Shown piece by piece: positions 42,098 to 58,360 of a stretch of DNA of 64,000 bases. The stretch's first letter is position 1. The number at the start of each line of letters is the position of its first letter. Where the stretch lies: assembly GCF_003670115.1 (NCBI RefSeq), contig NZ_QQTY01000006.1, forward strand, positions 1 through 64,000, given 5' to 3'. The notes under the pieces were generated by a model. The model was not told the DNA's origin and ran no database searches. It was given only the letters and a program-made list of their open reading frames with translations. The translations under genes were made by a program, and so were the position numbers. Origin of the DNA: Natronorubrum halophilum (lineage in GTDB: Archaea; Halobacteriota; Halobacteria; Halobacteriales; Natrialbaceae).

Positions 42098-42650
42098 TAA
42101 GATACAATCCCGAATGGAGGAGCTTGAGTCGTTGACAATAGACAACCGAGAGCGTATCGGCCGACGCACTGGCGTTCCGTTTATTGTGTTCACATACGAT
42201 CCAAAAGACGAATTCTCGGTCGATGACACGGTAGAAGCGTACGTCAAAAAACTGCGCAACCGAGGACAGTCAGTGGAATGGATCGACATGCGCGACCTCG
42301 TCTTTACTCTCCTCGAGGAAGAACACATTCTCGATGCTGTCATCGAGAAAGAGCAGGCCAACGAAGGAGAGTTGCGTCAAGGGCTCTCTTCCGTCCTCCT
42401 CGGTGGACGAACCGACGAACAAGGACTGATTGCGGAAACGATCAAGGACCGTATCGCCGATGTCGATACTGCGGTAGTGTACAGAACTGGGGTCTTGTAT
42501 CCCTTCGCTGGCATCTCTTCGATTCTCATGCAGTTAGAAAACGAAATTGAAACACCGTTCGTCGTCTTCTATCCCGCAGTCAAAGAAGACAAGAGTTTAA
42601 AATTCCTCGACAAAACAGAGGGGACATACTACCGCGCTCGGGTGATCTAA
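42087..42650 (+). CDS. brxB: BrxB (DUF1788) BREX protein
   Basis: The 187-residue protein reads RTGVPFIVFTYDPKDEFSVD, VEWIDMRDLVFTLLEE, then DTAVVYRTGVLYPFAGISSI and TPFVVFYPA. This is the Rossmann-like core of DUF1788, BrxB, including the conserved YPF near the end. BrxB bridges PglZ and other BREX subunits in characterised systems. The ATG overlaps brxA and the stop lies one base before the brxC ATG. Length is normal for the family. Confidence 0.9.
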   Translation: MTSSKIQSRMEELESLTIDNRERIGRRTGVPFIVFTYDPKDEFSVDDTVEAYVKKLRNRGQSVEWIDMRDLVFTLLEEEHILDAVIEKEQANEGELRQGLSSVLLGGRTDEQGLIAETIKDRIADVDTAVVYRTGVLYPFAGISSILMQLENEIETPFVVFYPAVKEDKSLKFLDKTEGTYYRARVI

Positions 42651-42651
42651 T

Positions 42652-45600
42652 ATGAGTTCAAACACGATAACAACGATTGACGAGATCTTCTATCGGTCGA
42701 TAGACCGGCACATCAACCGCGTCGTTAAGGTTGAACAAGACGACACAGAGACGGTAAAACAGGAACTCGACGAGTACGTACTAACCGGGTCTCTCGAGCA
42801 GCACTACCTGAAGATTCTGGAGGCGATTCGAGATACAGAGCACAATCCGACCGACGAAACGGGGGTCTGGATTTCCGGGTTCTTCGGCTCAGGAAAGAGC
42901 CATTTCATGAAGATTCTCGGTTACATTCTGGAGGATAAGACGCTCCCCGACGGTCGATCCGCCGCAGAGGCGTTCAAGCCTCGAGCGCAAGATGAAACCC
43001 TGAAAGCGACCGTCGACGCCGTCAGCCGAACGTTCGATTCGGAGGTGCTGATGTTCCAGATCGGCTCGCGAACGAGCCGAGCCGGCGAGGATTCGATCAC
43101 CGACGTGATCAACCGCGAATTCAATCGCAAGCAAGGCTACGCGGAACTCCCATGGGTCGCACGTCTGGAAGAGGACCTCGAAAAGGAAGGACGATACGAA
43201 GCGTTCAAAGAGGCAGTCGAAGCCAACGACGGACGAAACTGGGAGGAGATTCAGCAGAGCGCTGCGTTCATCGAGCCAAAAATCGAACAGGGGCTCGTCG
43301 ATGCCGTTCCCAATTTCGACGAGCAGGACGCGAAGAACGCGATAGAGAACGTCAAGGACGAGCCGGAGATCACTCCTGCCTCGCTCGCGGAACGAATTCT
43401 CGACTACGTCGAGCAGAAAGAGGCCGAAACGGATCAAGACGTTCGATTCTTCGTCTTTCTGGACGAGATCTCGCAGTTCATCGGTGACGACGAGCAGTTA
43501 CTCCTTGAACTCCAGAGTATTGCCGAAAAATTCGGAGAAAAGGGGATGGGGAAGCTCTGGCTCGGAGTAACCTCTCAAGAGAAACTCGAGGAACTCGTTC
43601 CTGGGGTACTTGCGAAGAACCTCGAAGAGTCGAAAGTCGGCGACCGGTTCCCGCACCAAACGGACCTCATCTCGGATAACCTCGACGACGTCGTTCGTGA
43701 CCGTATCTTGCAAAAGAAGGGAGATGCAATCCCATCGATCAAGACGCTGTACGGCGATAATGAGGGGCGACTGAGTGCCAGATACAAACTCAACTCATCC
43801 CGTCAGATGGAGACGATCGACGATGAGTCGTTCGTCGAGTGCTATCCGTTTCTTCCCTACCAGCTCGAAATACTGCCCCAGATCTTCGCAGCCCTTCGTG
43901 GTCGAGGATCCGACGACCGGCTGACCGGCCGCGAACGGACACTCATCGACGTTACGCAGAGCGTCTTCAACGAACCGCACAACCTTCGTAATCGTGAGCT
44001 GGGGGCACTCGCGACACTCGATCTCGTATACGAGGAAATCGTTGAGGACATCGACGACGACGACCAGCGGACGATCGCCGATGCGTCTCCACAGGATGTC
44101 GATAACGAACTGGCACGCCGAGTACTGAAATCACTATACCTCTTGCAGCGTCTCGACTGGATCCCCAACACCGCTTCAAACATCGCGACTACCCTGTACT
44201 ACGAAATAAGGGATATGAGCGCCTTCGAGAGCGACGTTGAAGAGGTATTAGAGCAGTTGGTCGAAGAAGGATACGTTGGTCGTGGCGAGGAAGGATACCG
44301 GTTCCTGCAGGAATCGGAACGTAAACTCGAGGACGAAATCGCGTCTGTAAAGGTTAACGAAGGGAGAGTCCGGGGCCGCTCAAAGGAATTCGTTCGTGAA
44401 GCCTTGGACAGTGCTGATACAGTCCGATACCGAGAACAGCCGTTCCCGGTTTCAGTCGAAGTAGACGGCGAACAGCTCTCCGGTAGCGGCCATATCCACC
44501 TTCACGCCTACTCACCGGTTCACCAGCAGTTCGAAGAAATTAACCCACGGACGCTGAAGACCCAGAGCTTCGATCAAGAGGATACAATCTACTGGATCGC
44601 TGACGATAGCGATGCAAACGATATCAAGAGCCGAATCAAACGGATCAAGCAGATCGAACAAATTGCGACGGAAAAACAGGGTCAGCAACTCAGTACTGAA
44701 GAGCAGGAAGCACTCGATCAAAAGAAAGAGGACCTTGGTCGAATGCGACGTAGTGTCCAGCGGGACATCGAGATCGCTTTCCAGACTGGAACGCTGATTT
44801 ACCACGGGAACGAGACAGAACTGGAAGAGTCGGGAACGCGTCTCGATCGAATCATCCAAGACCCGGCTCGAGACGCCGTTGAGCGCGTTTTCACCAAGCT
44901 CGAAGATGGCCTCGGGAGTGTCAGTAACCGAAACATCGAGAAGCTGTTCGAAGATCTCGAAGGCCGATCGAATCCGGCCGTATTCAAAGAGTTGAACGTC
45001 GTTCTCGATGGCGAACTAAATCCTGAGGCGCGGATCGCGACTGAGGTCGCCGACGAGATCGACTCGCGGGAGAAGGCCGGTGACGTTCCTACCGGAAAGG
45101 CGTTGATCGAGCACTTCTCCGAGCCACCGTACGGTTGGAGCCGCGATGTTGTCCGGCTGGCGGCGGCCGTGTTGTTCAGAAACGGATCGATTATGGCGAT
45201 CTACAAGGAGCAAACCTTCGACAGCTACGTCGACGACGGCGCTCAAGATGTATTCACTCAGATATCGAAGTTCCGCGAGGCTTCTTTCAAAGAGCGTGAA
45301 ACGGTCGATCCAGAAACCCGAAACGAGGCAAAGCAACTGCTCGATATCCTCTTCGATAAGAAAGTCAAGCAGACCGATCAGGAGGTTGCTCAGGGGATCT
45401 CGGAGGCTGCAAGCGAATGGATCGAGACGTGTAAGGAGCGACAGACAAATCTCGACGACGCGTTCTTCCCGCTGCGGGACGAACCCAAGCGGCTCGTCAC
45501 GTTACTCACAGCGATTCGAGACAAAGGTACGTCGGCGGCAAAGATCAACGCCTTCCTCGAGCACGAGGACGAACTCGAGGACTTGGTCGGAACGGTGAAG

Positions 45601-46272
45601 AAGGTCGTCGAATTCGATCGATCGGGCAAGCTCGATAAGTATGCGATCTACCGTGAATTCCTTGAAAACGAGTGGGAGGAGTTCAAAGACCTCGCGGAGA
45701 CATCCTCGTTCGTCGAGATCAGTGACGACGTAAACGAGGCAGCACGTCAGCTCGAAGGGGAAATCGACTCGAGAGCGGTAATCGAGAACTGGTCGAACAT
45801 CGAGACCGACTACCGAACGGTTGCGAACACATACGCCCGAACGTACGAGGACCTCTACAAGCAGCGATACGAGCTGTATTCGCGGGCCGCGGACGACGTG
45901 CGGGCACAAGGAACCGATCTCGATGCCGATGATCTCGAGACGGCCGTTGAGCCGCTCACCAATCGGATGGGGAGTTCGTCGATCTCTGTGGATATCGATG
46001 GGCGTTCGCATCTGAACCTCAATCCAAGCCTGAAACAGCTGACTGAGTATCTCCAGACCGTCGATTCGTATCGGAAACAGTCGCGCGATCGCATCGACGA
46101 GCTTCGGCCGGAGGACGAGGATGTCACGCACTATCGCGTCAACCTCGAGGAGTTCTTCGGCGGTGTTATCGTGACGGAGGAAGAGGAACTCGATGCGCCC
46201 GTCGATCGGCTTCGGACCGAAGTGCTGGAGTTACTTGACGAAGAGGGTGATGTCGAGATACACTTCGAGTAG
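42652..46272 (+). CDS. brxC: BrxC/PglY ATPase of BREX
   Basis: The 1206-residue protein has an N-terminal P-loop domain with WISGFFGSGKSHFMKI (Walker A at 76 to 83) and a Walker-B-like FFVFLDEISQFIGDDEQLL. The conserved region WLGVTSQEKLEELVPG follows, then a KIP-x-KTLYGDNEGRLSAR block and a long helical C-terminus. Family members are about 1200 residues and form large ATPase assemblies required for both methylation and phage exclusion. Codon use is the GC-rich type, in contrast to the centre of pglX. The gene is intact and follows brxB without a gap. Confidence 0.92.
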   Translation: MSSNTITTIDEIFYRSIDRHINRVVKVEQDDTETVKQELDEYVLTGSLEQHYLKILEAIRDTEHNPTDETGVWISGFFGSGKSHFMKILGYILEDKTLPDGRSAAEAFKPRAQDETLKATVDAVSRTFDSEVLMFQIGSRTSRAGEDSITDVINREFNRKQGYAELPWVARLEEDLEKEGRYEAFKEAVEANDGRNWEEIQQSAAFIEPKIEQGLVDAVPNFDEQDAKNAIENVKDEPEITPASLAERILDYVEQKEAETDQDVRFFVFLDEISQFIGDDEQLLLELQSIAEKFGEKGMGKLWLGVTSQEKLEELVPGVLAKNLEESKVGDRFPHQTDLISDNLDDVVRDRILQKKGDAIPSIKTLYGDNEGRLSARYKLNSSRQMETIDDESFVECYPFLPYQLEILPQIFAALRGRGSDDRLTGRERTLIDVTQSVFNEPHNLRNRELGALATLDLVYEEIVEDIDDDDQRTIADASPQDVDNELARRVLKSLYLLQRLDWIPNTASNIATTLYYEIRDMSAFESDVEEVLEQLVEEGYVGRGEEGYRFLQESERKLEDEIASVKVNEGRVRGRSKEFVREALDSADTVRYREQPFPVSVEVDGEQLSGSGHIHLHAYSPVHQQFEEINPRTLKTQSFDQEDTIYWIADDSDANDIKSRIKRIKQIEQIATEKQGQQLSTEEQEALDQKKEDLGRMRRSVQRDIEIAFQTGTLIYHGNETELEESGTRLDRIIQDPARDAVERVFTKLEDGLGSVSNRNIEKLFEDLEGRSNPAVFKELNVVLDGELNPEARIATEVADEIDSREKAGDVPTGKALIEHFSEPPYGWSRDVVRLAAAVLFRNGSIMAIYKEQTFDSYVDDGAQDVFTQISKFREASFKERETVDPETRNEAKQLLDILFDKKVKQTDQEVAQGISEAASEWIETCKERQTNLDDAFFPLRDEPKRLVTLLTAIRDKGTSAAKINAFLEHEDELEDLVGTVKKVVEFDRSGKLDKYAIYREFLENEWEEFKDLAETSSFVEISDDVNEAARQLEGEIDSRAVIENWSNIETDYRTVANTYARTYEDLYKQRYELYSRAADDVRAQGTDLDADDLETAVEPLTNRMGSSSISVDIDGRSHLNLNPSLKQLTEYLQTVDSYRKQSRDRIDELRPEDEDVTHYRVNLEEFFGGVIVTEEEELDAPVDRLRTEVLELLDEEGDVEIHFE

Positions 46273-46330
46273 CGTCTGACTTAGAGAACCTGATTCACTA
46301 ACTTCTCTACGGTCACTTTGCAGATCCCGT

Positions 46331-46591
46331 CTACGGAGGACTTTCAACTGGCATTAAATCGTGGTGATGGAATGCTATTGGAAGCTCTTCGTTTGTTTCT
46401 ACATCTCGAAGGATGTACGAGTATGAGTCTGTAATTCGACCAGTTTCTACATCAAGGTCGTCCTTGTGAACTCCCACAATCTCACAGATCATACCATGAT
46501 ACTGGACATCGGAGTCGCCAGAACCGAGGTATATTTTCACCTTGTCTCCAGCAGAGTATGAGCTACTCGATGGCTGTGAAATATCCTCCAT
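46331..46591 (-). CDS. Small antisense KOW/SH3-like protein between brxC and pglX
   Basis: The 86-residue product reads YSAGDKVKIYLGSGDSDVQY, GMICEIVGVHKDDLD, SYSYILRDVETNEELPIAFH and HHDLMPVE. It is a small beta-barrel of a type seen as single-domain haloarchaeal proteins (a short conserved domain with GD-VR-YLG at its start). The ATG at 46591 removes 15 codons that look unrelated. It is transcribed against the BREX operon, ending 58 bases after brxC. It may be regulatory or a hitch-hiker. Confidence 0.6.
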   Translation of the reverse strand: MEDISQPSSSSYSAGDKVKIYLGSGDSDVQYHGMICEIVGVHKDDLDVETGRITDSYSYILRDVETNEELPIAFHHHDLMPVESPP

Positions 46592-46903
46592 TAGTATCCT
46601 TTTGGTTGTACCGGCCGTATCAGTCCATCGCCACATTGGTGACCTACCTTCTCTACATGTATCCTATACGAATCGTTCGATAGCACTCTTAGTGAAAACT
46701 GAGTCTCTTTCAAAGTATGATTAACGACATATTCGACCAGCTAACGTAATCCGGTACTTCACTGATCAGTAGCTATTCGGAATATGATGTCTGTTCCAGA
46801 GTCAGTTTCTCGAACCCACTAGATTGATACGGCTGCTGTTTGTGGGAAGTAGTATACTGGAAGAGGGCAGCCCCCCGTTCCCTCGAATTCACGGACTCTA
46901 CAT
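46592..46903. promoter_or_regulatory. Divergent intergenic region upstream of pglX
   Basis: This 312-base gap separates the antisense small gene from pglX. It is AT-rich and contains TAGTATACT at 46851, about 45 bases before the pglX ATG, the best TATA candidate. The presence of an own promoter would uncouple pglX from brxE-A-B-C. No gene or strong repeat is seen. Confidence 0.4.
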
Positions 46904-49900
46904 ATGTCAGCAAAAACTCGACACAACGGTCTCAGCGCGGACGATCGATCGGGCATTCGAAGCACCATTCTGCAGGCTCGTAAGACGCTCGAGGAAGAGT
47001 TTGAACGCCAACTCGAGCGCTACGGGATCTACGATGACGAGCGAGTCCCGGTGAGTTCGCTCTCTCATCTGTCCGTCGAGGATATCGCGACACGAAAGGA
47101 GATCGATGCAGCGCTCGAGCGTGAACTCGAGGCGACGGATGGACTCTACGGGCGGGCATACCGAAACTATGTTCGAGAAGCAACGAAGGAGTATCTCAAC
47201 CGGCTCGTCGGGCTAAAGACGATCGAAGCGCGAGAACTAGTGACGGAAACACTTCGGACTCGAGCGGAGTACGGCAATCGCTCGTATATGCACTACACTG
47301 TCGACGAAATTGCGGGGGAATTGACCGATACTCCAGACGGCGGTCTAGGAGTCGCACTGGATCTAATCTACCAAGAGATCAGGTCAGAGATCCAGGTTCT
47401 GTTCGATGAATCTGACTACACGGCACTTGAGCCAGACTTCGCGGTGCGACGGGAGGTCCTTGAAGAATTCGATGATCTGGGTGATAATATCTGGGCGTCG
47501 GACGAAGCGATGGGCTGGGTATACCAGTACTTCGGTGAGAACGAGCGCAAAGAAATCGATGATCGGATTGACGAAGACAATTATAAGGTCCAAGACACGG
47601 ACATCGCAACGAAGACGCAACTGTTCACGCCCCGCTATATTGTCGAGTGGATGGTTGATAACTCGCTAGGACGGCTGTGGCTTGAGATGCGCGGCAATGA
47701 GACGAATATCGACGATGAGGACAAGTGCTTCTACCTCGCACCGCTCGAGGAGTCGTTGATCGATCGCGAACCGAAAGACGTGCGCGAGATCAAGGTGCTA
47801 GATCCGGCCTGTGGTAGTGGGCATATGTTGCTCTATGCATTTGACGTGTTGTATGAGATGTATCTCGAACAAGGAGATGTTCCGGAAAAGTATATTCCCC
47901 GAGAGATCCTTAAGAATAATCTCTACGGTATTGATATCGATGAAGGGGCCGCCCAGATTGCTGCATTAGCCCTGTACGTGAAGGCAAAGGGCTACTCACC
48001 AAATGTTTCAATTGAAGGTGTAAATATAGTTTCTGCTAATGCAGTATTAGTAAATGGTGAGAAGAAGAAAAATGTATTAGAGAATACTAACTTAGAAATA
48101 GAAAAGCGAGTACTGGACCAGCTCTGGGATGATTTTGAGCATATTCGAGAGTGGGGAAGTCTAGTTCGTATTGAAGAAAGAATAGAGGATATTATTGAAG
48201 AAGAATTCGAAGATGTCGGCACGACAGGCCAAACACAATTCACGAACGGTGGTAATTTGGCAAAGCAATCATCTGTAGTTTCATTCTCTGGTGAGGAGCA
48301 GTCATGGGATCAGGTAAAAGAAGGACTACTCAATCAGGTAACTAGATTAGCCGAGGAATCTCTCGAGCATGACAACCCCATTGAAGAGATGTTTGCCGGG
48401 GAAGTCAGAAAAAGCGTTCAATTATTAGACCTGTTTTTACAAGACTATGATGTTGCAATTACGAACCCACCATATTTAGGCCGGGGTAAAATGGGTGATG
48501 ATTTGAAGTCGTATGTAGAATCAAATTATAAAGGAAAACAAGATCTCTATGCAGCATTCATCGAACGTTGCAGAGATTTCATCAGCGAAAATGGGTATGC
48601 ATCTCTTATTACAATGGAAGCGTTCATGCACCAATATTCTTTCCGGGGTTTACGACCAAGTCTCATCGAGAACTCAAATATAATCGACGCAGCACATATC
48701 CGGAGTAGGGCTAAGGGATCTGGTGAATACCGAGGACTAAATGTATCATTCACAATATCACCTCTAAACGAAAGTACACCAGTCCGTCCATCACGGTTTT
48801 ATCGTTTAGTAAATGCTAATGACAAGCCATCAGCTTTGAGAGAGATAACTAGTGGTATCCGGGAGTCACAGTCCCATCCAGACTCTTATGTAATTGACCA
48901 ATCAGCATTTGCTGAAATTGACAGAACACCCTTTGTGTATCATCTTGGAGATGACATATTGTCATTATTCACATCAGAAGAATCTCTTTCGGACATGGCG
49001 GATATAAAAACTTGGTTGGACACTCAAGGAAATGATGACCGGTTCATAAGACGGTTTTGGGAAATAGATCCACAAACGGATCTTGACTGGGTGAGGTTAG
49101 TTACAAACGGTGATGGTGAATCCTACTATGAGCCAATAGTCAACAAAGTCCTTTGGGATAACGATGGCGAGGCTGTCAAAGAAGCTCTTGATGGAAAGCC
49201 TAGAAATGAAGATTGGTATTTCACAGAGGGGCTAAATTATCGAGTGTTTAGTGATAAGTTCTGTGCCAGATATCTTCCAGGTGATACCATTTTTGGCAAA
49301 AATACAATTGGTGTATTTCCACATGAGAAAGAAAATATATATTGGCTTATCACTTATCTCAATTCAACTCTAATCCGTCATACAGCAGATAGTTTGTCCC
49401 CTGGCTTACACTTCTTGAAAGGAGATGGTGGTACATTACCAATTATCCAGTTCTCGGAAACAAAAGAGAGGAAACTGACTAACATTTGTAAGAGCCAGAT
49501 TCGACTACGTAAAAAGCTAGGCTCATTATCAGAAGTGTCACCGGAGTTTGATCCTGAAGAATTTGTTTCGAATATTTCTTCCGGTGGATTTGGAAATGTC
49601 CTCCAATCTGAGGAATTACTTGAGGCAAATGTTAGAAATGGCGAAGGAAAGGCTGATTCAATGATATGGGAGAGCATGGATGCAAGTGAAAAGACAATTA
49701 ATGACGCACATGACCAATTTGGAATGAATTATTATGAGTTGCCAATATACCAAGAACATACTGATTATTCAGAGCATGAAGGTATCGATATAATAAAGTC
49801 GAGGCCGGATGATGAATCGGTCGATCAGATAAGTGGATTAATTAACGATGGGACCGGAGGTATATTTGGATTGTCAAAAGAGGTTGAGTTGTCGCCGGTA

Positions 49901-50608
49901 TCTGTCGCGAAATTACGGTATGAAAACGACCTATATGTAAGGGAAAATCTAAAAGAAGTATGTGGCCGACTCCTCTCTTACTACGTCGGTGTCCTGTTTA
50001 GCCGATGGGACAACCTCGAGCAAATCACAACGATCGAAGACGGTATCCTTGTCTTTGACGATCAGTTTGACAATAACGTAACCGATCGCATCCGTAAGTG
50101 CATCGAAGCCACTTTCGACGATGTTTACGAGAAAGAAGCCAAAATCGAGGAGTTACTCAACAAGAACATGACCGACTGGCTCCGCGAGAACTTCTTCCGC
50201 TACCACCACACAAAGAAGTACCGTCGGCGCGGTCAACGCATCCCTATCTACTGGCACCTCGAGAGCGACGACGGTGCGTTCAGTTGCTTCCTCTACTATC
50301 ACGCCATGGACGCCGAAACACTCCCAAAACTCCGCGGTCAGTACGTCGACGCCAAGATCGAGACCCTCGAGAACCGACTCGAAAGCATCGAGAGCCAACT
50401 TGAGGGCGCGAGTGACAATCGGAAACCTGAACTCAACTCCGAACTGGAGGAGGTTCAGGAACAACTCGATGACGTGAGAGACTTCGGTAAGCGACTCGAC
50501 GAACTGATCGACGAGGGCTTCGAGCCGGACTTCGAGGCCGGGATTTGGGAGAACATCCAGCAGGTCGATGAGTACGATCTACTGCAGACCGAACTCGATA
50601 AACTGTAA
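46904..50608 (+). CDS. pglX: PglX BREX adenine-specific DNA methyltransferase
   Basis: The 1234-residue protein has the PglX layout: N-terminal helical region, motif I VLDPACGSGHMLLYAF (D300), GIDIDEGAAQIAALAL, and motif IV DVAITNPPYLG (N521 to Y524). The target-recognition and C-terminal parts include YHHTKKYRRRGQRIPIYWHL and a coiled coil near residues 1150 to 1200. BREX PglX methylates the N6 of adenine in a short non-palindromic site to mark self DNA. Both ends use GC-rich codons, while roughly 47990 to 49960 is strikingly AT-rich, suggesting that the centre and target domain came by recombination. Confidence 0.93.
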   Translation: MSAKTRHNGLSADDRSGIRSTILQARKTLEEEFERQLERYGIYDDERVPVSSLSHLSVEDIATRKEIDAALERELEATDGLYGRAYRNYVREATKEYLNRLVGLKTIEARELVTETLRTRAEYGNRSYMHYTVDEIAGELTDTPDGGLGVALDLIYQEIRSEIQVLFDESDYTALEPDFAVRREVLEEFDDLGDNIWASDEAMGWVYQYFGENERKEIDDRIDEDNYKVQDTDIATKTQLFTPRYIVEWMVDNSLGRLWLEMRGNETNIDDEDKCFYLAPLEESLIDREPKDVREIKVLDPACGSGHMLLYAFDVLYEMYLEQGDVPEKYIPREILKNNLYGIDIDEGAAQIAALALYVKAKGYSPNVSIEGVNIVSANAVLVNGEKKKNVLENTNLEIEKRVLDQLWDDFEHIREWGSLVRIEERIEDIIEEEFEDVGTTGQTQFTNGGNLAKQSSVVSFSGEEQSWDQVKEGLLNQVTRLAEESLEHDNPIEEMFAGEVRKSVQLLDLFLQDYDVAITNPPYLGRGKMGDDLKSYVESNYKGKQDLYAAFIERCRDFISENGYASLITMEAFMHQYSFRGLRPSLIENSNIIDAAHIRSRAKGSGEYRGLNVSFTISPLNESTPVRPSRFYRLVNANDKPSALREITSGIRESQSHPDSYVIDQSAFAEIDRTPFVYHLGDDILSLFTSEESLSDMADIKTWLDTQGNDDRFIRRFWEIDPQTDLDWVRLVTNGDGESYYEPIVNKVLWDNDGEAVKEALDGKPRNEDWYFTEGLNYRVFSDKFCARYLPGDTIFGKNTIGVFPHEKENIYWLITYLNSTLIRHTADSLSPGLHFLKGDGGTLPIIQFSETKERKLTNICKSQIRLRKKLGSLSEVSPEFDPEEFVSNISSGGFGNVLQSEELLEANVRNGEGKADSMIWESMDASEKTINDAHDQFGMNYYELPIYQEHTDYSEHEGIDIIKSRPDDESVDQISGLINDGTGGIFGLSKEVELSPVSVAKLRYENDLYVRENLKEVCGRLLSYYVGVLFSRWDNLEQITTIEDGILVFDDQFDNNVTDRIRKCIEATFDDVYEKEAKIEELLNKNMTDWLRENFFRYHHTKKYRRRGQRIPIYWHLESDDGAFSCFLYYHAMDAETLPKLRGQYVDAKIETLENRLESIESQLEGASDNRKPELNSELEEVQEQLDDVRDFGKRLDELIDEGFEPDFEAGIWENIQQVDEYDLLQTELDKL

Positions 50609-50673
50609 CTGAGAGTAGTCTGTCAACCAGTTCCCTTCTGTTCAGTGACGCAGAAATTCGTGTTTGAAAATCA

Positions 50674-51525
50674 TCACAGCGCCTCGAGCCGATCGATCGC
50701 TCTATCGGTACAGATTCCCTCAATAGTCAATCGAAGCAACGAACCCAATCGCCCACCTTCGCCATACGACGGACGATTCAGATTACCAGCTCGTCTTGGC
50801 GATCCAATTTCTCTGATTGCTCGTTGCTTTGCCGACCCGTCATCACTGTTAATAACCCCAAAGACTCGACCGCCTCGGTCTTTGATCAGGGAAAAACACG
50901 GAATATCCGTGATTCCGTCACCAATATAAATCATATTCTCGAATGGAATTCGACGATCCTCCGGATCCGTCTGCGTGTTTACTCTGTATGGGTTTTCCTG
51001 GGCAGACTCGGGAGAGATTCCTTTATTGATCTCGTAGAGATACCGGGTTTTATCAGTAAACGATATTGGTCGTTGAATACGATTAACGACACCTTCAGCG
51101 TCTATATCCAATCGAGATCCATATATTGCCTCACAATGATCAGCGATTTCGGTTCCCTTGATTATCGGCTCGAGTCCCTCCGAGACAATATAGAAATTGA
51201 CCGAGACATCGGTATATTCGTCTACGATCGCACGAATGTCGCCGAAAAGACCAGACAATCCGGGGTAGAGCATCTCGTTCAACGTTGCTCCGACTGATTC
51301 GAGATCCTCGATTGTGAGTTCACCGAATGGTCGGTCTTCCCCAACCTTATCGAGTAATAACGAAAGATAGGCGACTGTTGGATCGTATCCTTCTTTGACA
51401 CGGGCTGAAAATTCTGCCGACCAGAACTCCTGCGGATCACATCCATACTCTCGAAGCAGTTGCGTTGTTGAATCAGGAGCAAGTGTATCATCGAAGTCGA
51501 ATATTAATCCGATGTTGGTACTCAT
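50674..51525 (-). CDS. HAD-superfamily phosphatase
   Basis: The 283-residue product shows all four HAD motifs: GLIFDFDDTLAPDS (I, nucleophile and acid Asp), NFYIVSEGLEP (II, Ser), SFTDKTRYLYEINKG (III, Lys) and MIYIGDGITDIPCFSL (IV, acidic pair). A helical cap lies between I and II. It would hydrolyse a phosphoester, perhaps a nucleotide or small signal. It converges on pglX and is 9 bases downstream of the regulator gene on the same strand, thus probably a two-gene operon inside the BREX locus. Confidence 0.8.
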   Translation of the reverse strand: MSTNIGLIFDFDDTLAPDSTTQLLREYGCDPQEFWSAEFSARVKEGYDPTVAYLSLLLDKVGEDRPFGELTIEDLESVGATLNEMLYPGLSGLFGDIRAIVDEYTDVSVNFYIVSEGLEPIIKGTEIADHCEAIYGSRLDIDAEGVVNRIQRPISFTDKTRYLYEINKGISPESAQENPYRVNTQTDPEDRRIPFENMIYIGDGITDIPCFSLIKDRGGRVFGVINSDDGSAKQRAIREIGSPRRAGNLNRPSYGEGGRLGSLLRLTIEGICTDRAIDRLEAL

Positions 51526-51534
51526 CTGCTGTGG

Positions 51535-52101
51535 TCACTCCTGACCGGCTACTTGCTGGAAGTTATTTCTCTGTGACCGGTGATCTCTCCAGCGGTTTTG
51601 CAGATCCGCTGCTTCTCCCTCATCAGTGGCGACGAGGATTCGTCGTCTATCACCATCGCCGATCATCCCATCGACAAGCTCTGGGTCACCAAGCGACTTG
51701 TAACGCTTCTCATGTGCGTGTCCACCCACGAGGTGGTCGATATCGCTGGCGATCTCTTGCTTTCCGAGCGTAGTGATTCTATAGTAGGTTTGACGTCCAT
51801 CAGCACCCTCAGGAGCAGGTATTTTCGCGATAAGATTCGTCTCGAGAAGATCCTCTAAGTGGTGCTGTAAAGCATTGCTGTCGCGGCCTGTTTCCGTAGC
51901 GAGGCGCTTCCTCGAGATCTTCCCGTACTCGAAGAGCAAGTAGAGGATGCTATATCTCGTCGGCTCCGCTAGCGCTTGTTTCCGTTCGATATGCCGCTCC
52001 AACGTATCGATCTTCCCGCCGAACAGTTGCTGCTCTACGTATTCGATTACGTCCCCGTTGTCCAGCGCATCGAAGATATCCACCTCTGGGAACCTTGTCA
52101 T
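51535..52101 (-). CDS. ArsR/MarR-like winged-helix regulator
   Basis: The 188-residue protein has a winged helix at about residues 42 to 115: RKQALAEPTRYSILYLLFEYG, KISRKRLATETGRDSNALQ, HHLEDLLETNLI and GRQTYYRITTLGKQE. The C-terminal part (GGHAHEKRYKSLGDPELVDG) is the kind seen in haloarchaeal regulators. The ATG at 52101 is chosen since an earlier frame start would lie on a GTTAAC operator-like repeat. It is divergent from the deoxyribosyltransferase-like gene and upstream of the HAD gene, so it is likely to control both. Confidence 0.8.
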   Translation of the reverse strand: MTRFPEVDIFDALDNGDVIEYVEQQLFGGKIDTLERHIERKQALAEPTRYSILYLLFEYGKISRKRLATETGRDSNALQHHLEDLLETNLIAKIPAPEGADGRQTYYRITTLGKQEIASDIDHLVGGHAHEKRYKSLGDPELVDGMIGDGDRRRILVATDEGEAADLQNRWRDHRSQRNNFQQVAGQE

Positions 52102-52134
52102 GGTAGTCCTATCTACGCAGTCCTCCTTGATTAG

Positions 52135-52150
52135 GTTAACGGTAGTTAAC
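52135..52150. promoter_or_regulatory. Palindromic operator candidate GTTAACGGTAGTTAAC
   Basis: Two GTTAAC hexamers separated by four bases form a near-perfect 16-base dyad in the middle of the 105-base divergent gap between the regulator (start 52101) and the deoxyribosyltransferase-like gene (start 52207). A dimeric winged-helix repressor commonly binds such a site. The link is inferred. Confidence 0.5.
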
Positions 52151-52206
52151 AAAACTATTCAACAAGAATCGATACCTATTCGGTGTTCATAGAACCAGTA
52201 TTGGTA

Positions 52207-52932
52207 ATGGGCGATCGGGACTATGGGTTCACGTTCGACGGAGAACCGGTGTTCACGCATATTCAACAGGACGTTCCTCAGCCGCCTGAATCCGGTCTCG
52301 ATCAAGATCTTTTCGTGTTCGTGATGGGCCCATATACCGCGTTCGACGCGGGGTACGTCTATGATGATGGAGAACAGCTCGAAAATCCGTTTATCGCTGA
52401 CCCACTGTTTGACCCCGAGAGTCACGTCACCGCTGATGGACGCGGAAGTTTCAGACAAGCTCTTGAGGACATCTGTACCTCATTTCGAGAAGAATTCGGC
52501 GTTCATGCGTTCCTCGCGACCGACGTTGCAATCCCTACGGAACAGGAAGCTGGTGACGATGAACCGTCGATGTCCGTGCTTGACCAATCAGTTGCCTTCG
52601 CAGCAGTCAGTGATGCCATCGTTTTCGTATTCACGAAGGCTGGACTTACAACGGGTGTCGGGTCAGAAGTAGGCGCTATTCTCGGGGAATTTCATCTTCG
52701 GAGGGGGAATCCGGAACCGGTTCGAAAACCTCATGAGCGGTTCCGAATCTTCAAAACGGCAGATTTCAGTAGTGCAAGTATCGACGAAATCCCATCGACA
52801 TATGGGATCGATACAGTCGAGTTTGAGGAAAAAGAGGAGTTGGTTCGAAGAACTCAGCACTTCCTCGCAAATATAGAGCGTGACGATCCTGATCGGCCAC
52901 TTCCCGTGTTCAACCCATATACAGGAGTGTAA
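52207..52932 (+). CDS. Nucleoside deoxyribosyltransferase/TIR-like protein
   Basis: The 241-residue product has a Rossmann-like fold: LFVFVMGPYTAFDAGYVYDD as first strand and turn, an inner helix (FRQALEDICTSFREEFGVHA), FLATDVAIPTE, LDQSVAFAAVSDAIVFVFTK, and then GVGSEVGAILGEFHLRR. The last has a Glu in the SExG-type position that is catalytic in 2-deoxyribosyltransferases and related TIR/SLOG nucleotide-cleaving folds. That relation makes it a candidate for cleaving NAD or nucleotides. I know similar haloarchaeal genes only as uncharacterised. It is divergent from the regulator. Confidence 0.6.
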   Translation: MGDRDYGFTFDGEPVFTHIQQDVPQPPESGLDQDLFVFVMGPYTAFDAGYVYDDGEQLENPFIADPLFDPESHVTADGRGSFRQALEDICTSFREEFGVHAFLATDVAIPTEQEAGDDEPSMSVLDQSVAFAAVSDAIVFVFTKAGLTTGVGSEVGAILGEFHLRRGNPEPVRKPHERFRIFKTADFSSASIDEIPSTYGIDTVEFEEKEELVRRTQHFLANIERDDPDRPLPVFNPYTGV

Positions 52933-52986
52933 AGACACGCCACCATGACAAGCAGTGCAGCTCTTAACGAGGCGGGAAGTGGTCGG

Positions 52987-53628
52987 CTACAGGAATGTAT
53001 TCGAAATTACTTCGACCCGCTCAAGTTCGTCCTCAAGTTCATCGATCGTCGACAGCACATCCATGTACTCCGATAGCGGTCGTGCCTTCCGCGACTCGCC
53101 GTACGTCGCCGGCTCCATGTCTTCTCCAACGATACAGAGGAAGGTTCGTTCCCTCTTTCGACCGAGTCCCATCTCCATCGCCTTGTGATAGCGTTCGAGT
53201 TGTCGTTTAATGTCTTGAGCTTTCAGATTTGGCAGTGCTCGTTTCATCTCAATGAGGTAGTCCCCTTCACTGTAGTCGGATTCGACGTACAGATCTGCAG
53301 ACGGTCGATTGTGCACGTCGAGCCGATATTCCGTTCTGACCGTGTATGGTCCAGTAATCGTCGCTGTGAGTGCACCGTACAACTGCGCTGTAAACCAGTT
53401 TTCAGACATTCCACCGTTATCGCCACCGCCTGTCGATGTCGACACTGGCGTTTCTCGAAGCACCGTACGAATTTTCTGTGGCAGCGTTTCCGGCCCCGGA
53501 ATCAATACCTTGCGACGAATATCCGCCATCGCGTCGGTATACGTAATGTTCCCACTCGATATGTTCCGATCGATCGACTCCCGTATCGAGATTGAGAGAT
53601 CATTTACCGAAACATCTGTTTTCCGCAC
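52987..53628 (-). CDS. PD-(D/E)XK-like nuclease, putative
   Basis: The 213-residue product has an N-terminal helical region and a core reading ENWFTAQLYGALTATI, RLDVHNRPSADLYVES with an Asp, and GDYLIEMKRALPNLKAQDI with an ExK pair. A helix with QLERYHKAMEMG and a strand FLCIVGEDM follow. This is the order expected of a PD-(D/E)XK nuclease-like domain such as those in restriction or Holliday enzymes. It is encoded against pglZ and converges with the deoxyribosyltransferase-like gene. It could be a cutting partner of the BREX locus; activity is inferred from motif spacing. Confidence 0.6.
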   Translation of the reverse strand: MRKTDVSVNDLSISIRESIDRNISSGNITYTDAMADIRRKVLIPGPETLPQKIRTVLRETPVSTSTGGGDNGGMSENWFTAQLYGALTATITGPYTVRTEYRLDVHNRPSADLYVESDYSEGDYLIEMKRALPNLKAQDIKRQLERYHKAMEMGLGRKRERTFLCIVGEDMEPATYGESRKARPLSEYMDVLSTIDELEDELERVEVISNTFL

Positions 53629-53897
53629 CTGACACCACTCCGCTCCGGAATCGCCTGCAGTTCGTCCTTAGTGAATCCACGAAGAAACTGTAGATGAGGA
53701 CCTCCTCGAGCCATATTGAGTCTCTCGAGCCAGCGCTCTTGGTACTACTGGCTCTTCCATACGATACCGACATGTGGCCGAAAGTTTCCGAGGACACTGA
53801 ATCGAACTACCTGACTATTATAGTAGCAGTCACTCTATGACCGACAAGTGAGATTCATGCAACGAAGGAAAATCGACTGTACATCGGTGATTCGCTA

Positions 53898-56333
53898 ATG
53901 TCGGACACGTTCACGGAGGTCGTCACCGAACTCGAGGAAAAGTTCGAGCGCCACCCCGTCTGGGTCTGGTACGATTCGAGCGAAAAGTACGGCAACGTCA
54001 TTGACGACATCGAAGCGACGATGGAAGATCGAGGAGTGAACGTCGCCCGATACGATGGTAGTTTCCTCGAACTGAAACGCCGACTCTGGGAAGAGGACAA
54101 CGACATCGAAGAGGAGTGGCTGTTCTACATCCCGAAATGGCGCGATGAGGCGGAGTGGTTTATGGACGTCCACCGGCTGGGGCGACAGTTCCGGCCCGGC
54201 GCAACCGTCGGTGATCGACCTGCTTCGAAGTATCTCGTCGGAAAGGAGGATCGAATCCCGGACGAGTACGCCAACTGGGGGCAGAACGAGACGCAGCTGA
54301 GTCGAGCGTTCTTCTGCGTCCTCTTCGAAACGCCGAACCATTCCCCTCGCGACTACATCGTACAGTACCTCGCGGATCCCGACACGTACCGCGATACGAT
54401 CGAAGAACACGGACAAGGGCACGAGTGGGAACACCTTCTTCAAGAAACGTACGGCATCTCGGCAGGACTCGACGCAGAAGAGATCGCAACCGAAGTACTC
54501 TTCGGCGAACTCCAGCACAGCTCTCCCACTGACCGGTATGACCGTCTCGCTGCCGACGAGACCCAAACAGCAACCGAACTCTGTGAGTACTGGCAGAAGA
54601 TCGATACCGCGACCTATCTCGAGTACGCCGCTTCGGTTAGTGAGGACCGAAATCTCACCCAAGAGGTCGTCGGCTCGGACTCGCTCGAGTGGGCGTCGAA
54701 TTCGTTCCGACAGGTCGACGACGGCCTCGTCCAACTCTGTCTGAATCGCCTTTCCCAAGCCGATTTCGACGAACTACCCACAATTGCAACTGAGCTCGAG
54801 TCAGTCGTCGAACGGCGACAGAACGGGTTCTGGTACGATGAGGGACACGCTGGGTACTGGGATATTCTCGACCACGGGTTGGAAGTTCTCAACGATGCAG
54901 GCTCCGCAATAGACGAAATCGAAGCCGAGGGATACGATCCGAGAGCTCTCGCGGAACGGTACACTGACGACTGGTGGACGATAGACGCTGCGTACCGTCG
55001 CTACGTTCGCAGCGTCAAAGACAACCGTCGTCCCGTCGAGGGATTGCACGACGTTCGAGACCGGATTACGAACTACTACGTGTCGTTCCTCCGGACGCTC
55101 AACCGTCCAGTCGCCGAACACCTCGCCGACGACCCTGTGCTCGGAACGCCACAGACGGACTTCTTCGACTCGCACGTTGATCGTGAAGATGGAACGGCAG
55201 TCATCATCTGTGACGGATTACGATATGAACTAGCCCGCGAGCTGGAGGAACGGTTCGAATCCGACGACGAAACCGATCAGCATACTGCGCTTGCGTCGGC
55301 TGCACTTCCGTCGATCACGGAAGTCGGGATGGCGACCCACCTTCCCGGCGATCTCTCGCTTAAACTCGACTCGAACGAAGACTTAGTCGTCGAAGTCGAT
55401 GAAACCGAAATCTCGTCAAAACGGGATCGAAAAGCGTGTTTGAACGATGCCGGGTTCACCGTTTCGGATATCGACGACGTTCTGAGTACACCTCAGAAAT
55501 CCCTGAAAGAAGAGGGTGTACCACCGAGAATTGTTTACTCCGGTATTATCGACAAGCTCGGGGAAAGTCTCGACGATGATAAGGCACTCGCACAGGCTGC
55601 TGACCACGTTCGCGACGTAGAGGACGTAATCCAACGCCTCCGCGCTGCGGGGTACACTCGGTTCGTTGTGACCGCAGATCATGGCTTCCTCTACACCGAA
55701 GAACTCTCCGACCGGGATAAGGTCGAATCGCTCGATGGAGTCGCATTCACGAAGCGAAGATTCGCAGCGGCCGATGCTGATGCTCCGGTTATTCCGGGTG
55801 AGGAGATCATCGAGTTCGACGAGAGCCAGTTGAGTCAACTGGGGATCGAAGTGGACGATCTGCGGCTATTCTTCCCGCGAAGCGTTGCCTGCTTCAAAGC
55901 AGCCGGTGGAAACATGCGTTACTTCCACGGCGGCATTTCGATGCAGGAGCTGGCAGTTCCCTGCCTTACAGTGACGACCGTTGAACGCGAGGACGAAGAT
56001 GCTCCGATCGAATACGACGTGTCGTTCCCTGACAACGTGACGAACACGATCGTCGACGTAACGATCGCTGCTCGTAGTAGTCAGCTCTCGTTCTCCCGGA
56101 CGCCAACACTGCGACTCACGGCAACAGTCGATGGTCGAGAGGTGGCGGAACCGAAACTCATCGAGGTCAACCAGGGTGAGAATGAAGCGACGCTCCGTCT
56201 GAAAAGTGGCGAACTCGACGAGGACGCAACCATTTTGTTCGAGGCGATTGACGAAGAGACGCGTGAGACGTTGTCCAAGGGTGAAGCGAAAAATGACATC
56301 GTTATGCGGGAAGACTTCGAATTCGATATCTAA
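53898..56333 (+). CDS. pglZ: PglZ (BREX alkaline-phosphatase-fold protein)
   Basis: The 811-residue product has a helical N-terminal half (ELEEKFERHPVWVWYDSSEK near its start). The PglZ domain carries TAVIICDGLRYELARELEER with metal-binding Asp (D439), EVGMATHLP, a region around DKLGESLDDDKAL and FVVTADHGFLYTEELSD with D594/H595. The C-terminal beta-sandwich includes VTNTIVDVTIA. PglZ is essential in every BREX type. The gene shares one base (A of TAATG) with the brxL ATG, so both are coupled. Length fits the type-A PglZ of type 1 BREX. Confidence 0.92.
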   Translation: MSDTFTEVVTELEEKFERHPVWVWYDSSEKYGNVIDDIEATMEDRGVNVARYDGSFLELKRRLWEEDNDIEEEWLFYIPKWRDEAEWFMDVHRLGRQFRPGATVGDRPASKYLVGKEDRIPDEYANWGQNETQLSRAFFCVLFETPNHSPRDYIVQYLADPDTYRDTIEEHGQGHEWEHLLQETYGISAGLDAEEIATEVLFGELQHSSPTDRYDRLAADETQTATELCEYWQKIDTATYLEYAASVSEDRNLTQEVVGSDSLEWASNSFRQVDDGLVQLCLNRLSQADFDELPTIATELESVVERRQNGFWYDEGHAGYWDILDHGLEVLNDAGSAIDEIEAEGYDPRALAERYTDDWWTIDAAYRRYVRSVKDNRRPVEGLHDVRDRITNYYVSFLRTLNRPVAEHLADDPVLGTPQTDFFDSHVDREDGTAVIICDGLRYELARELEERFESDDETDQHTALASAALPSITEVGMATHLPGDLSLKLDSNEDLVVEVDETEISSKRDRKACLNDAGFTVSDIDDVLSTPQKSLKEEGVPPRIVYSGIIDKLGESLDDDKALAQAADHVRDVEDVIQRLRAAGYTRFVVTADHGFLYTEELSDRDKVESLDGVAFTKRRFAAADADAPVIPGEEIIEFDESQLSQLGIEVDDLRLFFPRSVACFKAAGGNMRYFHGGISMQELAVPCLTVTTVEREDEDAPIEYDVSFPDNVTNTIVDVTIAARSSQLSFSRTPTLRLTATVDGREVAEPKLIEVNQGENEATLRLKSGELDEDATILFEAIDEETRETLSKGEAKNDIVMREDFEFDI

Positions 56334-58360
56334 TGACCCAACGTGAACTCGATCAAAAGGCGCTCGAGCACTTTTCTGGGCGCGTCGTCCGGAAAGATCT
56401 CGTCCAAGATATCAAATCAGGCGCGAACGTCCCGACGTACGTTCTTGAGTACCTCGTCGGTCAGTACTGTGCGACCGATAGTGAGTCAGCGATTGAGGAA
56501 GGCGTCGAGAGAGTAAAAGAAATCCTGAAAAAACACTACGTCCGACCCGACGAAGCGGAGTTCATTAAGTCGGAGGTTCGTGAGCGTGGCCGCTACCGCG
56601 TCATCGATAAGGTGAATGTCCAGCTTGACGAACGGCAAGACGCGTACGTCGGCTCGTTCGTCAATCTGCAAATTAGCAACGTCGAGATCAACGAACATCT
56701 CGTCAGCAAACACCCTAAACTGCTTGGTGGAGGAGTGTGGGCGGTTATCGACCTCGAGTATCTTCCAGACAACGTTGGATCGGAGCACAGCCTATTTGGA
56801 ATTGACTCATTCAAACCAATCCAGGTATCAAGTCTTGATCTCGAGGAGATCAAAGAGCGTCGTCGAGAGTTCACACGCGACGAGTGGCGCGACCTGCTGT
56901 TGCACAGTCTGGGATACGATCCAGCCAGCTTCTCCGACCGAGAGAAGATGCTCTTTCTCACCCGCTGTCTTCCTCTCTGTGAGAATAACTATAATTACGT
57001 TGAACTCGGCCCACGAGGGACTGGAAAGAGCTTCCTGTATCGCGAGATCAGCCCCCATTCGATCCTCATCTCTGGTGGCAAGACGACGGTCGCAAAGTTG
57101 TTCCTGAACCTCAACACAGGACAAATAGGTCTCGTCGGTCGATGGGATGTCGTCGCTTTCGACGAAGTTGGTGGACTGCGATTTTCCGATTCGGAGGCAG
57201 TCCAGATGCTCAAGGATTACATGGAGTCTGGGAGCTTCTCACGCGGTACTGAAGAGCTCTCAGCCCGGGCATCGATGGTCTACGTCGGGAACATCGATCT
57301 CGATGTTGAAGGGGTTCTCAAGAGCTCACACCTCTTCAAGCCGTTCCCTGATGATATGCAAGATCTCGCGCTGATCGATCGCTTCCACTATTACCTTCCC
57401 GGCTGGGAAATTCCAAAGATGCGCTCGGAATTCTTCGACGACCAGTTCGGATTCATCGTGGATTATTTCTCCGAGTTTATGCGCGAGTTGCGGAAAGAAT
57501 CCCACGGTGACGCGATAAACGAATACTTCGCCTTCGGCGATCACCTGAACCAGCGAGATGAACGAGCGGTCCGAAAGACCGTTTCAGGATTCCTGAAAAT
57601 GCTCCATCCGCACGGTGAGTATACAAAAGAAGAGCTCCGGGAATACCTCGAATTCGCCATGGAAGGGCGGCGACGAGTGAAAGAACAGTTGAAGCGGATG
57701 GGTGGAATGGAGTATCGGGCGGTCAACTTCTCGTATATTGATCTGGATACTCGAGAGGAAATCTTCGTCACCGTTCCGGAGGAAGCGGAAGAAACACTCA
57801 TTCCGCAGGGAACGCAGCAGCCGGGTTCTATCTATACGATTGGGAACACTGAGTCTCAAAATGCCGTTTTCCGGATCGAGACGCAGGCACTTCCAGGGAA
57901 GGGGAAAAAGAGTATCTCGGGTACTCCCGGATCTGAGATGAAAGAGGAGTTCGAAACAGCGTATGACTATCTGAAGGCAAACATGCGCGAGCTTTCGCGT
58001 GAGGAGTCACTCGACGACCACGATATCAAAATTCAGGTGCTAAACCCATCTGATGCCTCGGAAGGAAAGGCTACCAGTGTTGGATTCCTGGTTGGAATCA
58101 TCTCGAGTATACTTGATCGACCAGTACGTCCGCGTCTCGTAGTGCTCGGGAGCATGAGTCTCATGGGAGAACTCGTAGAAGCGAGTTCGCTCGTCGACAA
58201 ACTCCAACTAGCAGTCGACGCAGGAGCAGGAACGGTACTTCTTCCGGCGAAAAATAAGGACAGCTTCAGCAAGATCCCCGACGAGATTCTTGATGAACTC
58301 GAACTCGTATTCTATACTGATCCAATAGAGGCAGCAAGCAAAGCACTCCAACTAGAATAA
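56333..58360 (+). CDS. brxL: BrxL, AAA+/Lon-like BREX effector
   Basis: The 675-residue protein opens like BrxL (LDQKALEHFSGRVVRKDLVQ and VLEYLVGQYC). It has an AAA+ core with ELGPRGTGKSFLYREI (Walker A at 226 to 233) and GRWDVVAFDEVGGLRFSD. A C-terminal Lon-like domain has EGKATSVGFLVGIISS with a Ser in the nucleophile region and VDKLQLAVDAGAGTVLLP with the Lys. BrxL is DNA-binding and required for phage exclusion rather than methylation in type 1 BREX. It is the last gene of the core operon. Its presence sets the locus apart from the type 5 systems more usual in haloarchaea. Confidence 0.92.
   Translation: MTQRELDQKALEHFSGRVVRKDLVQDIKSGANVPTYVLEYLVGQYCATDSESAIEEGVERVKEILKKHYVRPDEAEFIKSEVRERGRYRVIDKVNVQLDERQDAYVGSFVNLQISNVEINEHLVSKHPKLLGGGVWAVIDLEYLPDNVGSEHSLFGIDSFKPIQVSSLDLEEIKERRREFTRDEWRDLLLHSLGYDPASFSDREKMLFLTRCLPLCENNYNYVELGPRGTGKSFLYREISPHSILISGGKTTVAKLFLNLNTGQIGLVGRWDVVAFDEVGGLRFSDSEAVQMLKDYMESGSFSRGTEELSARASMVYVGNIDLDVEGVLKSSHLFKPFPDDMQDLALIDRFHYYLPGWEIPKMRSEFFDDQFGFIVDYFSEFMRELRKESHGDAINEYFAFGDHLNQRDERAVRKTVSGFLKMLHPHGEYTKEELREYLEFAMEGRRRVKEQLKRMGGMEYRAVNFSYIDLDTREEIFVTVPEEAEETLIPQGTQQPGSIYTIGNTESQNAVFRIETQALPGKGKKSISGTPGSEMKEEFETAYDYLKANMRELSREESLDDHDIKIQVLNPSDASEGKATSVGFLVGIISSILDRPVRPRLVVLGSMSLMGELVEASSLVDKLQLAVDAGAGTVLLPAKNKDSFSKIPDEILDELELVFYTDPIEAASKALQLE

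What the first reader, a model, noticed from the sequence alone, without database searches (positions are those of the whole stretch)
50674..53628. Four-gene block with its own regulator inserted between pglX and pglZ
Seen: HAD phosphatase and ArsR-like regulator on the minus strand, a divergent deoxyribosyltransferase/TIR-like protein, and a minus-strand PD-(D/E)XK-like protein. They split the BREX core at the place where accessory genes are often inserted. Inference: a regulated secondary module that might make or clear a nucleotide signal (NAD or nucleotide cleavage by the Rossmann protein, phosphate removal by HAD) and damage DNA if BREX fails. I know no description of this combination.
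Basis: partly seen in the sequence, partly recalled or inferred. Interest (0 to 1): 0.75.

Follow-up and report, generated by a model that had tools for sequence, protein, structure and literature searches.

The report
Mobile nucleotide-enzyme cassette inside BREX
A small mobile gene cassette (a nucleotide-cleaving-type enzyme, its repressor and a phosphatase) has dropped into a swap-in slot of an archaeal antiviral system next to an unrelated nuclease gene; the enzyme–repressor pair is scattered through about half of salt-loving archaea and I found no description of it.

Summary
The four genes exist as described, but they are not one block. A near-identical BREX-1 locus in Halomontanus rarus keeps the PD-(D/E)XK gene between pglX and pglZ and lacks the other three. 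Homology stops at the pglX stop codon (50607) and resumes at the nuclease stop codon (52988). So 50609-52986 is a three-gene cassette (HAD phosphatase, wHTH, divergent DUF7509), and the nuclease is a separate BREX-linked gene. The pglX–pglZ gap is a swap-in slot: 22 other haloarchaeal BREX-1 loci hold nothing, GmrSD, TBP paralogues, an OLD/LmuB-like ATPase or unknowns; none holds this cassette.

The cassette occurs in five other haloarchaea, with no BREX recognised nearby. Its core, wHTH divergent from DUF7509, is present in 30/30 sampled loci, while flanking genes are almost never shared. DUF7509 is in 213/391 haloarchaeal genomes. It models as a nucleoside-deoxyribosyltransferase fold closest to the CMP N-glycosidase MilB, with the nucleophilic Glu invariant, but the DNPH1 catalytic Asp replaced by Ser. 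A conserved palindrome (52134-52151) in the shared promoter looks like the repressor's operator. Best reading: a repressor-controlled nucleotide-hydrolysing conflict/defence module. Activity and any link to BREX function are untested.

The parts
50674..51525 (-). HAD-IB-type phosphatase (PADLOC candidate PDC-S34), 283 aa; co-directional with the wHTH gene (9 bp gap)
   Evidence: Pfam HAD 1.6e-7, PDC-S34 8.9e-59; catalytic motifs DFDDT / SEG / K / GDGITD intact
51535..52101 (-). winged-HTH regulator, 188 aa from the likely ATG (ORF open to 52152)
   Evidence: HTH_20 7e-6; homologues divergent from DUF7509 in 72/79 locus records
52134..52151 (.). palindrome GGTTAACggtaGTTAACa, candidate operator of the wHTH in the shared promoter region
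   Evidence: 12-14/14 matches to GGTTAACN4GTTAACC in 5 of the 6 cassette loci and 11/14 in the sixth; 0 to 1.3% of shuffles as good
52207..52932 (+). DUF7509 protein, 241 aa from the likely ATG (ORF opens at 52183): nucleoside-deoxyribosyltransferase / DNPH1-MilB fold
   Evidence: PF24349 4.9e-42; model pLDDT 79.5, pTM 0.81; best PDB match MilB CMP N-glycosidase, prob 1.00; invariant MGPY and E162
50609..52986 (.). extent of the inserted three-gene cassette
   Evidence: homology with the Halomontanus BREX locus stops at 50607 and resumes at 52988
52987..53628 (-). PD-(D/E)XK nuclease, BREX-linked accessory gene, not part of the cassette
   Evidence: 93% identical gene at the same place in Halomontanus without the cassette; remnant beside pglZ in Natronosalvus; motif conservation
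50609..53800 (.). whole variable slot between pglX and pglZ (GmrSD sits here in the same-genus genome G120)
   Evidence: DNA homology with G120 breaks at about 50601 and resumes at about 53801

Best explanation
The finding is two things in one BREX-1 accessory slot. (1) A three-gene mobile cassette: a winged-HTH repressor and a HAD phosphatase are co-transcribed, and DUF7509 is transcribed divergently from the shared, palindrome-bearing promoter. The repressor is inferred to silence both directions until infection or stress releases it. DUF7509, a deoxyribosyltransferase-fold enzyme with the MilB/DNPH1-type nucleophilic Glu, would then split the N-glycosidic bond of a nucleotide (a monophosphate or NAD-like), and the HAD enzyme would dephosphorylate the nucleotide or the sugar phosphate, so that nucleotides needed by a virus or plasmid rival are drained. 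(2) A resident PD-(D/E)XK nuclease that belongs with the BREX locus. Shown: anatomy, modularity, fold family, motif conservation, conserved palindrome. Inferred: co-transcription, repression, catalysis, substrate, antiviral role.
For: Cassette versus resident gene: Halomontanus comparison. Cassette found in five more haloarchaea with no BREX recognised near it. Pair conserved in 30/30 sampled loci, yet only 7/30 share any flanking gene with another, against 30/30 for radA: an independently moving two-gene unit. DUF7509 in 213/391 haloarchaeal genomes. Fold: MilB E 6.6e-5, prob 1.00, with DNPH1, BcmB, NDTs and TIR further down. E162 invariant. Palindrome. HAD relatives lie inside type I R-M operons, two of them with Shedu, on three alphaproteobacterial plasmids and the family is a PADLOC defence candidate. 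The slot elsewhere holds GmrSD and LmuB/AriA-like ATPases. Precedents: HAD phosphatase effectors that deplete ATP/IMP (PMC12715507), DS-9 (PMC13092281).
Against: The catalytic Asp of DNPH1 (D80, PMC10603095) aligns with an invariant Ser (S136) in DUF7509, so the chemistry may differ or be lost. The HAD nucleophile is lost in one cassette (L130) and motif IV is GNG in two. None of the other cassette neighbourhoods is a recognised defence island (trk/topoVI, aldolase, PdxS-like, tRNA synthetase). DUF7509 itself matches no PADLOC model. Three of six cassette loci were found only through DUF7509 searches, and the count is small.
Confidence: 0.4

Rival explanations
1. The four genes are a dedicated BREX back-up module acting together.
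For: All four sit between pglX and pglZ; auxiliary nucleases in BREX loci are documented (PMC12839542).
Against: The unit breaks in both directions: nuclease without cassette, cassette without nuclease or BREX. 1 of 23 examined haloarchaeal BREX-1 loci has the cassette.
Confidence: 0.07
2. The cassette is a nucleotide-pool sanitiser or salvage unit (DNPH1-like removal of odd nucleotides plus phosphatase), feedback-controlled by the wHTH, with no antiviral purpose; it was captured in the slot by chance.
For: The closest solved folds include MilB and, lower down, DNPH1, a sanitiser (PMC10603095); more than half of haloarchaea have the family; neighbours of other copies are ordinary genes.
Against: A housekeeping enzyme would be expected in stable neighbourhoods; flanks are almost never shared. 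Some haloarchaea already have ordinary DNPH1-like proteins.
Confidence: 0.25
3. wHTH-DUF7509 is a toxin-antitoxin or plasmid-maintenance unit: DUF7509 is a nucleotide- or NAD-destroying toxin held in check by transcriptional repression, and HAD is an add-on.
For: Autonomous two-gene unit with no synteny; next to orc1/cdc6 replication genes on Natrinema and Halalkalicoccus plasmids; retron systems combine an NDT-like protein with a winged helix (PMC12548924).
Against: No protein antitoxin tested; the wHTH is divergent rather than in one operon with the toxin; no toxicity data.
Confidence: 0.2
4. DUF7509 has lost catalysis and is a nucleotide-binding sensor that tunes the wHTH.
For: Catalytic Asp of the family replaced by Ser; the wHTH resembles the HTH part of the CARF regulator Csa3.
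Against: The nucleophilic Glu and the MGPY loop are invariant in the aligned members, as expected of an enzyme.
Confidence: 0.08

Closest known systems
CMP N-glycosidase MilB / DNPH1 (RCL), nucleoside-deoxyribosyltransferase superfamily
   Same: Predicted fold (MilB prob 1.00), GxGxExG motif with invariant nucleophile-position Glu, GP(Y) loop
   Different: DNPH1 catalytic Asp is Ser in DUF7509; extra N-terminal part; substrate unknown; paired with a wHTH
Retron-Eco1 (Ec86) effector, NDT-like plus winged helix
   Same: Combination of an NDT-fold protein with a winged helix
   Different: Two divergent genes, no reverse transcriptase or ncRNA recognised here; the resemblance comes from PMC12548924 and my own knowledge, not from an alignment
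CARF-HAD (Chp) effectors and DS-9 HAD phosphatase
   Same: HAD phosphatases used in defence (PMC12715507, PMC13092281)
   Different: Stand-alone HAD with no CARF part matched; different partner genes; no published test
PADLOC candidate PDC-S34
   Same: The HAD protein matches over its length at 8.9e-59
   Different: PDC-S34 is only a predicted candidate; here the gene is in a three-gene cassette
Auxiliary/back-up PD-(D/E)XK nucleases of BREX (PMC12839542)
   Same: Stand-alone nuclease inside the core BREX locus
   Different: A small haloarchaeal family, antisense to the operon, decayed in relatives

Membership tests
BREX type 1 locus | BrxA, BrxB, BrxC, PglX, PglZ, BrxL in order | tested here: met
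   BREX-1 PglX 1e-203, BrxC 9e-253, BrxL 4e-273; PglZ type A matches at 1.6e-53 but under its curated cut-off
BREX-dedicated four-gene module | the four genes co-occur as a unit beside BREX in other genomes | tested here: not met
Nucleoside deoxyribosyltransferase / DNPH1 superfamily | fold | tested here: met
   (MilB E 6.6e-5, prob 1.00; TM-score by target 0.54-0.58, so a distant member)
Nucleoside deoxyribosyltransferase / DNPH1 superfamily | nucleophilic Glu in GxGxExG | tested here: met
   E162 invariant
Nucleoside deoxyribosyltransferase / DNPH1 superfamily | general-acid Asp (D80 of DNPH1) | tested here: not met
   aligns with invariant Ser136; alignment weak (E 0.019)
Nucleoside deoxyribosyltransferase / DNPH1 superfamily | N-glycosidic bond cleavage | not testable with these tools
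   needs an enzyme assay
HAD phosphatase | motifs I-IV | tested here: met
   DFDDT, SEG, K, GDGITD in the window protein
PD-(D/E)XK nuclease | D...ExK core conserved in the family | tested here: met
   D112, E127, K129 invariant; family hits
PD-(D/E)XK nuclease | fold | tested here: inconclusive
   single-sequence model failed, pLDDT 32
Retron type with NDT/WH effector | reverse transcriptase and ncRNA | not tested
   no reverse transcriptase search was run; none of the annotated or Pfam-scanned neighbours is one
Toxin-antitoxin | toxicity neutralised by partner | not testable with these tools
   needs expression assay

The most novel reading that the evidence does not exclude
wHTH-DUF7509 is an unrecognised, autonomous antiviral or toxin-type module spread through about half of haloarchaea, with an NDT-fold effector that uses an altered active site (Ser in place of the catalytic Asp) on a new nucleotide substrate, and with a HAD phosphatase as a second processing step in one branch.
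Probability: 0.35. Interest if true: 0.75.

Novelty: new variant of a known kind. Interest (0 to 1): 0.5.

Why it matters
It turns an apparent BREX add-on into a clue to a widespread module: DUF7509 had no hit in the 5.39-million-paper library, is in over half of haloarchaeal genomes, keeps its regulator as partner and changes its neighbours. If its enzyme destroys a nucleotide it would add an archaeal branch to nucleotide-depletion immunity. It also marks the pglX-pglZ gap of haloarchaeal BREX as a place to look for new defence genes.

Tried and rejected
Four-gene unit: rejected. BREX-specific cassette: rejected, 1 of 23 BREX-1 loci. Virus-borne origin: no DUF7509 relative in IMG/VR by pattern scan or in phage records. 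Direct or inverted repeats at the cassette borders: none of 9 bases or more. Foreign base composition: cassette 50.0% GC against pglX 45.9% and pglZ 56.4%, not informative. PDB sequence searches with DUF7509, the nuclease and the HAD gave nothing meaningful. Single-sequence fold of the nuclease failed. Nuclease relatives in viral contigs: none. Promoter palindrome outside the cassette clade: Halorussus L127 has it (11/14); the more distant L131-L135 show a TTAA-type dyad that does not match the same consensus better than shuffles except L134.

Full report
Observation. The window holds a complete haloarchaeal BREX type 1 locus (brxA, brxB, brxC, pglX, pglZ, brxL at 41243-58360). Homologue alignments favour starts at 52101 for the regulator and 52207 for the divergent gene.

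Not one block. A Halomontanus rarus plasmid (NZ_CP135525.1, L061) carries the same BREX locus at 96-98% protein identity outside pglX (63%), and a 93% identical nuclease between pglX and pglZ, but no HAD, HTH or DUF7509. DNA homology ends at window 50607, the pglX stop codon, and resumes at 52988, the nuclease stop codon; Halomontanus has 607 unrelated bases there. The insertion is therefore 50609-52986, three genes. In Natronosalvus (L116) the same sub-slot holds two other genes and the nuclease is a remnant. In the same-genus genome G120 (pglZ 98%) the whole interval is replaced by a GmrSD type IV restriction gene and small ORFs.

A swap-in slot. In 22 other haloarchaeal BREX-1 loci the pglX-pglZ gap holds nothing (4), TATA-binding-protein paralogues (6), GmrSD (2), an OLD/LmuB-like ATPase (2), a 172-176 aa unknown family (3), a 353 aa unknown family (2), a 128 aa ORF (1), the nuclease alone (1), or two unknown genes plus a nuclease remnant (1). 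Only the window has the cassette.

The cassette elsewhere. HAD-wHTH-DUF7509 in the same order and orientation occurs in Halolamina sp. CBA1230 (plasmid; also found as G074), G318, G345 (= L118), G174 and a Haloferacaceae MAG (L130), at 56-73% DUF7509 identity. Neighbours there are ordinary genes (trk and topoisomerase VI; aldolase; PdxS-like; tRNA synthetase), not BREX or nuclease genes. In the DUF7509 tree the six HAD-bearing rows fall on one side of one branch, with weak support (64/3). So HAD was probably recruited once and the three genes then moved together. HAD catalytic motifs are intact in the window copy; one relative (L130) lost the nucleophile and two have GNG in motif IV.

The core pair. 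DUF7509 is in 213 of 391 haloarchaeal genomes. A homologous wHTH stands divergently beside it in 72 of 79 locus records (two collections overlap, so these are not all independent) and in 30/30 of the sample of best family matches. Several of the seven exceptions are disrupted copies. In that sample only 7/30 share any gene in the 1.5 kb flanks with another genome and no family is shared by more than two, while all 30 radA loci share one and the commonest family is in 11. The radA sample is a different draw with more same-genus genomes, so this is a rough control. The pattern is that of a small autonomous mobile unit, not a housekeeping gene with a fixed address.

Fold and active site. AlphaFold2 on 18 sequences gave pLDDT 79.5 and pTM 0.81. 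Foldseek against the PDB ranks MilB CMP N-glycosidase first (4jel, E 6.6e-5, prob 1.00), with NDT, DNPH1, BcmB and TIR structures further down at non-significant E-values. Pfam's NDT family matches weakly (0.025). Invariant residues include M48 G49 P50 Y51, F110, A112, D114, Q135, S136, G158, E162, G164 and L220 (a few columns are about 97% because of gaps in the larger set). In DNPH1 the nucleophile is E104 and the catalytic Asp D80, with MilB closely similar (PMC10603095). Aligned with haloarchaeal DNPH1-like proteins, E162 matches the nucleophile and S136 the Asp (low-confidence profile alignment). The fold membership is sound; the chemistry is inferred and may be altered.

Regulation. The 105 bp between the two likely start codons hold GGTTAACggtaGTTAACa at 52134-52151. 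Five of six cassette loci match GGTTAACN4GTTAACC at 12-14 of 14 positions, with none of 300 shuffles as good; L130 has 11 (1.3% of shuffles). The consensus was chosen after looking at these sequences, so the shuffle figures are optimistic; the conservation across loci is the stronger point. It lies 33 bases upstream of the regulator's likely start, where a leaderless haloarchaeal promoter would have its TATA region (general knowledge), so autorepression, and control of both directions, is the natural inference. It was not tested.

The nuclease. Its family has invariant E100, D112, E127xK129, Q143 and Y147 and relatives match PDDEXK_4 and HSDR_N_2. Close copies sit beside BREX (Halomontanus, Natronosalvus remnant); the Natrinema copy is broken and away from BREX; distant ones occur elsewhere, e.g. 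beside a type I-B CRISPR-cas locus. Stand-alone PD-(D/E)XK auxiliaries in BREX loci are described (PMC12839542), so this part is a new member of a known kind.

Mechanism. Most likely the wHTH keeps the cassette off; on release, DUF7509 cleaves the glycosidic bond of a nucleotide and the HAD enzyme removes phosphate, lowering a nucleotide pool. Support for a conflict role is indirect: slot company (GmrSD, LmuB/AriA-like ATPase), mobility, HAD relatives inside type I R-M operons, two of them with Shedu, on three alphaproteobacterial plasmids, the PADLOC candidate label, and precedents of HAD phosphatase effectors (PMC12715507, PMC13092281). Against it stand the ordinary neighbourhoods of the other cassettes and the missing Asp. 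Sanitation and toxin-antitoxin readings remain open.

Verdict. The four-gene BREX module is not real as a unit. The cassette, and above all the pan-haloarchaeal wHTH-DUF7509 pair, is real and undescribed in the library searched.

Noticed in passing
L141, L142, L143, L146, L150, L158 (pglX-pglZ gap): Six of 22 haloarchaeal BREX-1 loci carry a TATA-binding-protein paralogue between pglX and pglZ (two Pfam-confirmed, 7e-44 and 4e-18; the rest by similarity), which could give BREX its own promoter recognition.
   Followed up: partly
L061:19173-19835 and L116:1738-2400; window 46331-46636: Halomontanus and Natronosalvus have a related 220 aa antisense gene (sequence suggests a nuclease-like GEVK motif) between brxC and pglX, a second accessory slot; the window has only an unrelated 101 aa ORF there.
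   Followed up: partly
window 46904-50608: PglX is only 63% identical to the Halomontanus copy although the neighbouring BREX proteins are 96-98% identical, as if the methyltransferase had been swapped for a new specificity.
   Followed up: no
L144, L147, L149, L151, L156 (pglX-pglZ gap): Two recurrent unknown families (172-176 aa and 353 aa) occupy the BREX slot in several haloarchaea; representatives had no Pfam or PADLOC match.
   Followed up: no
L007, L008, L159: The HAD family sits in an alphaproteobacterial plasmid type I R-M operon (M, RhuM, S, Shedu in two of three, HAD, R, SprT).
   Followed up: no
L102:9220-12035 (Natronoglomus, also L121): A TnpB-like gene lies between the two halves of a DUF7509 gene, which is therefore interrupted.
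   Followed up: no
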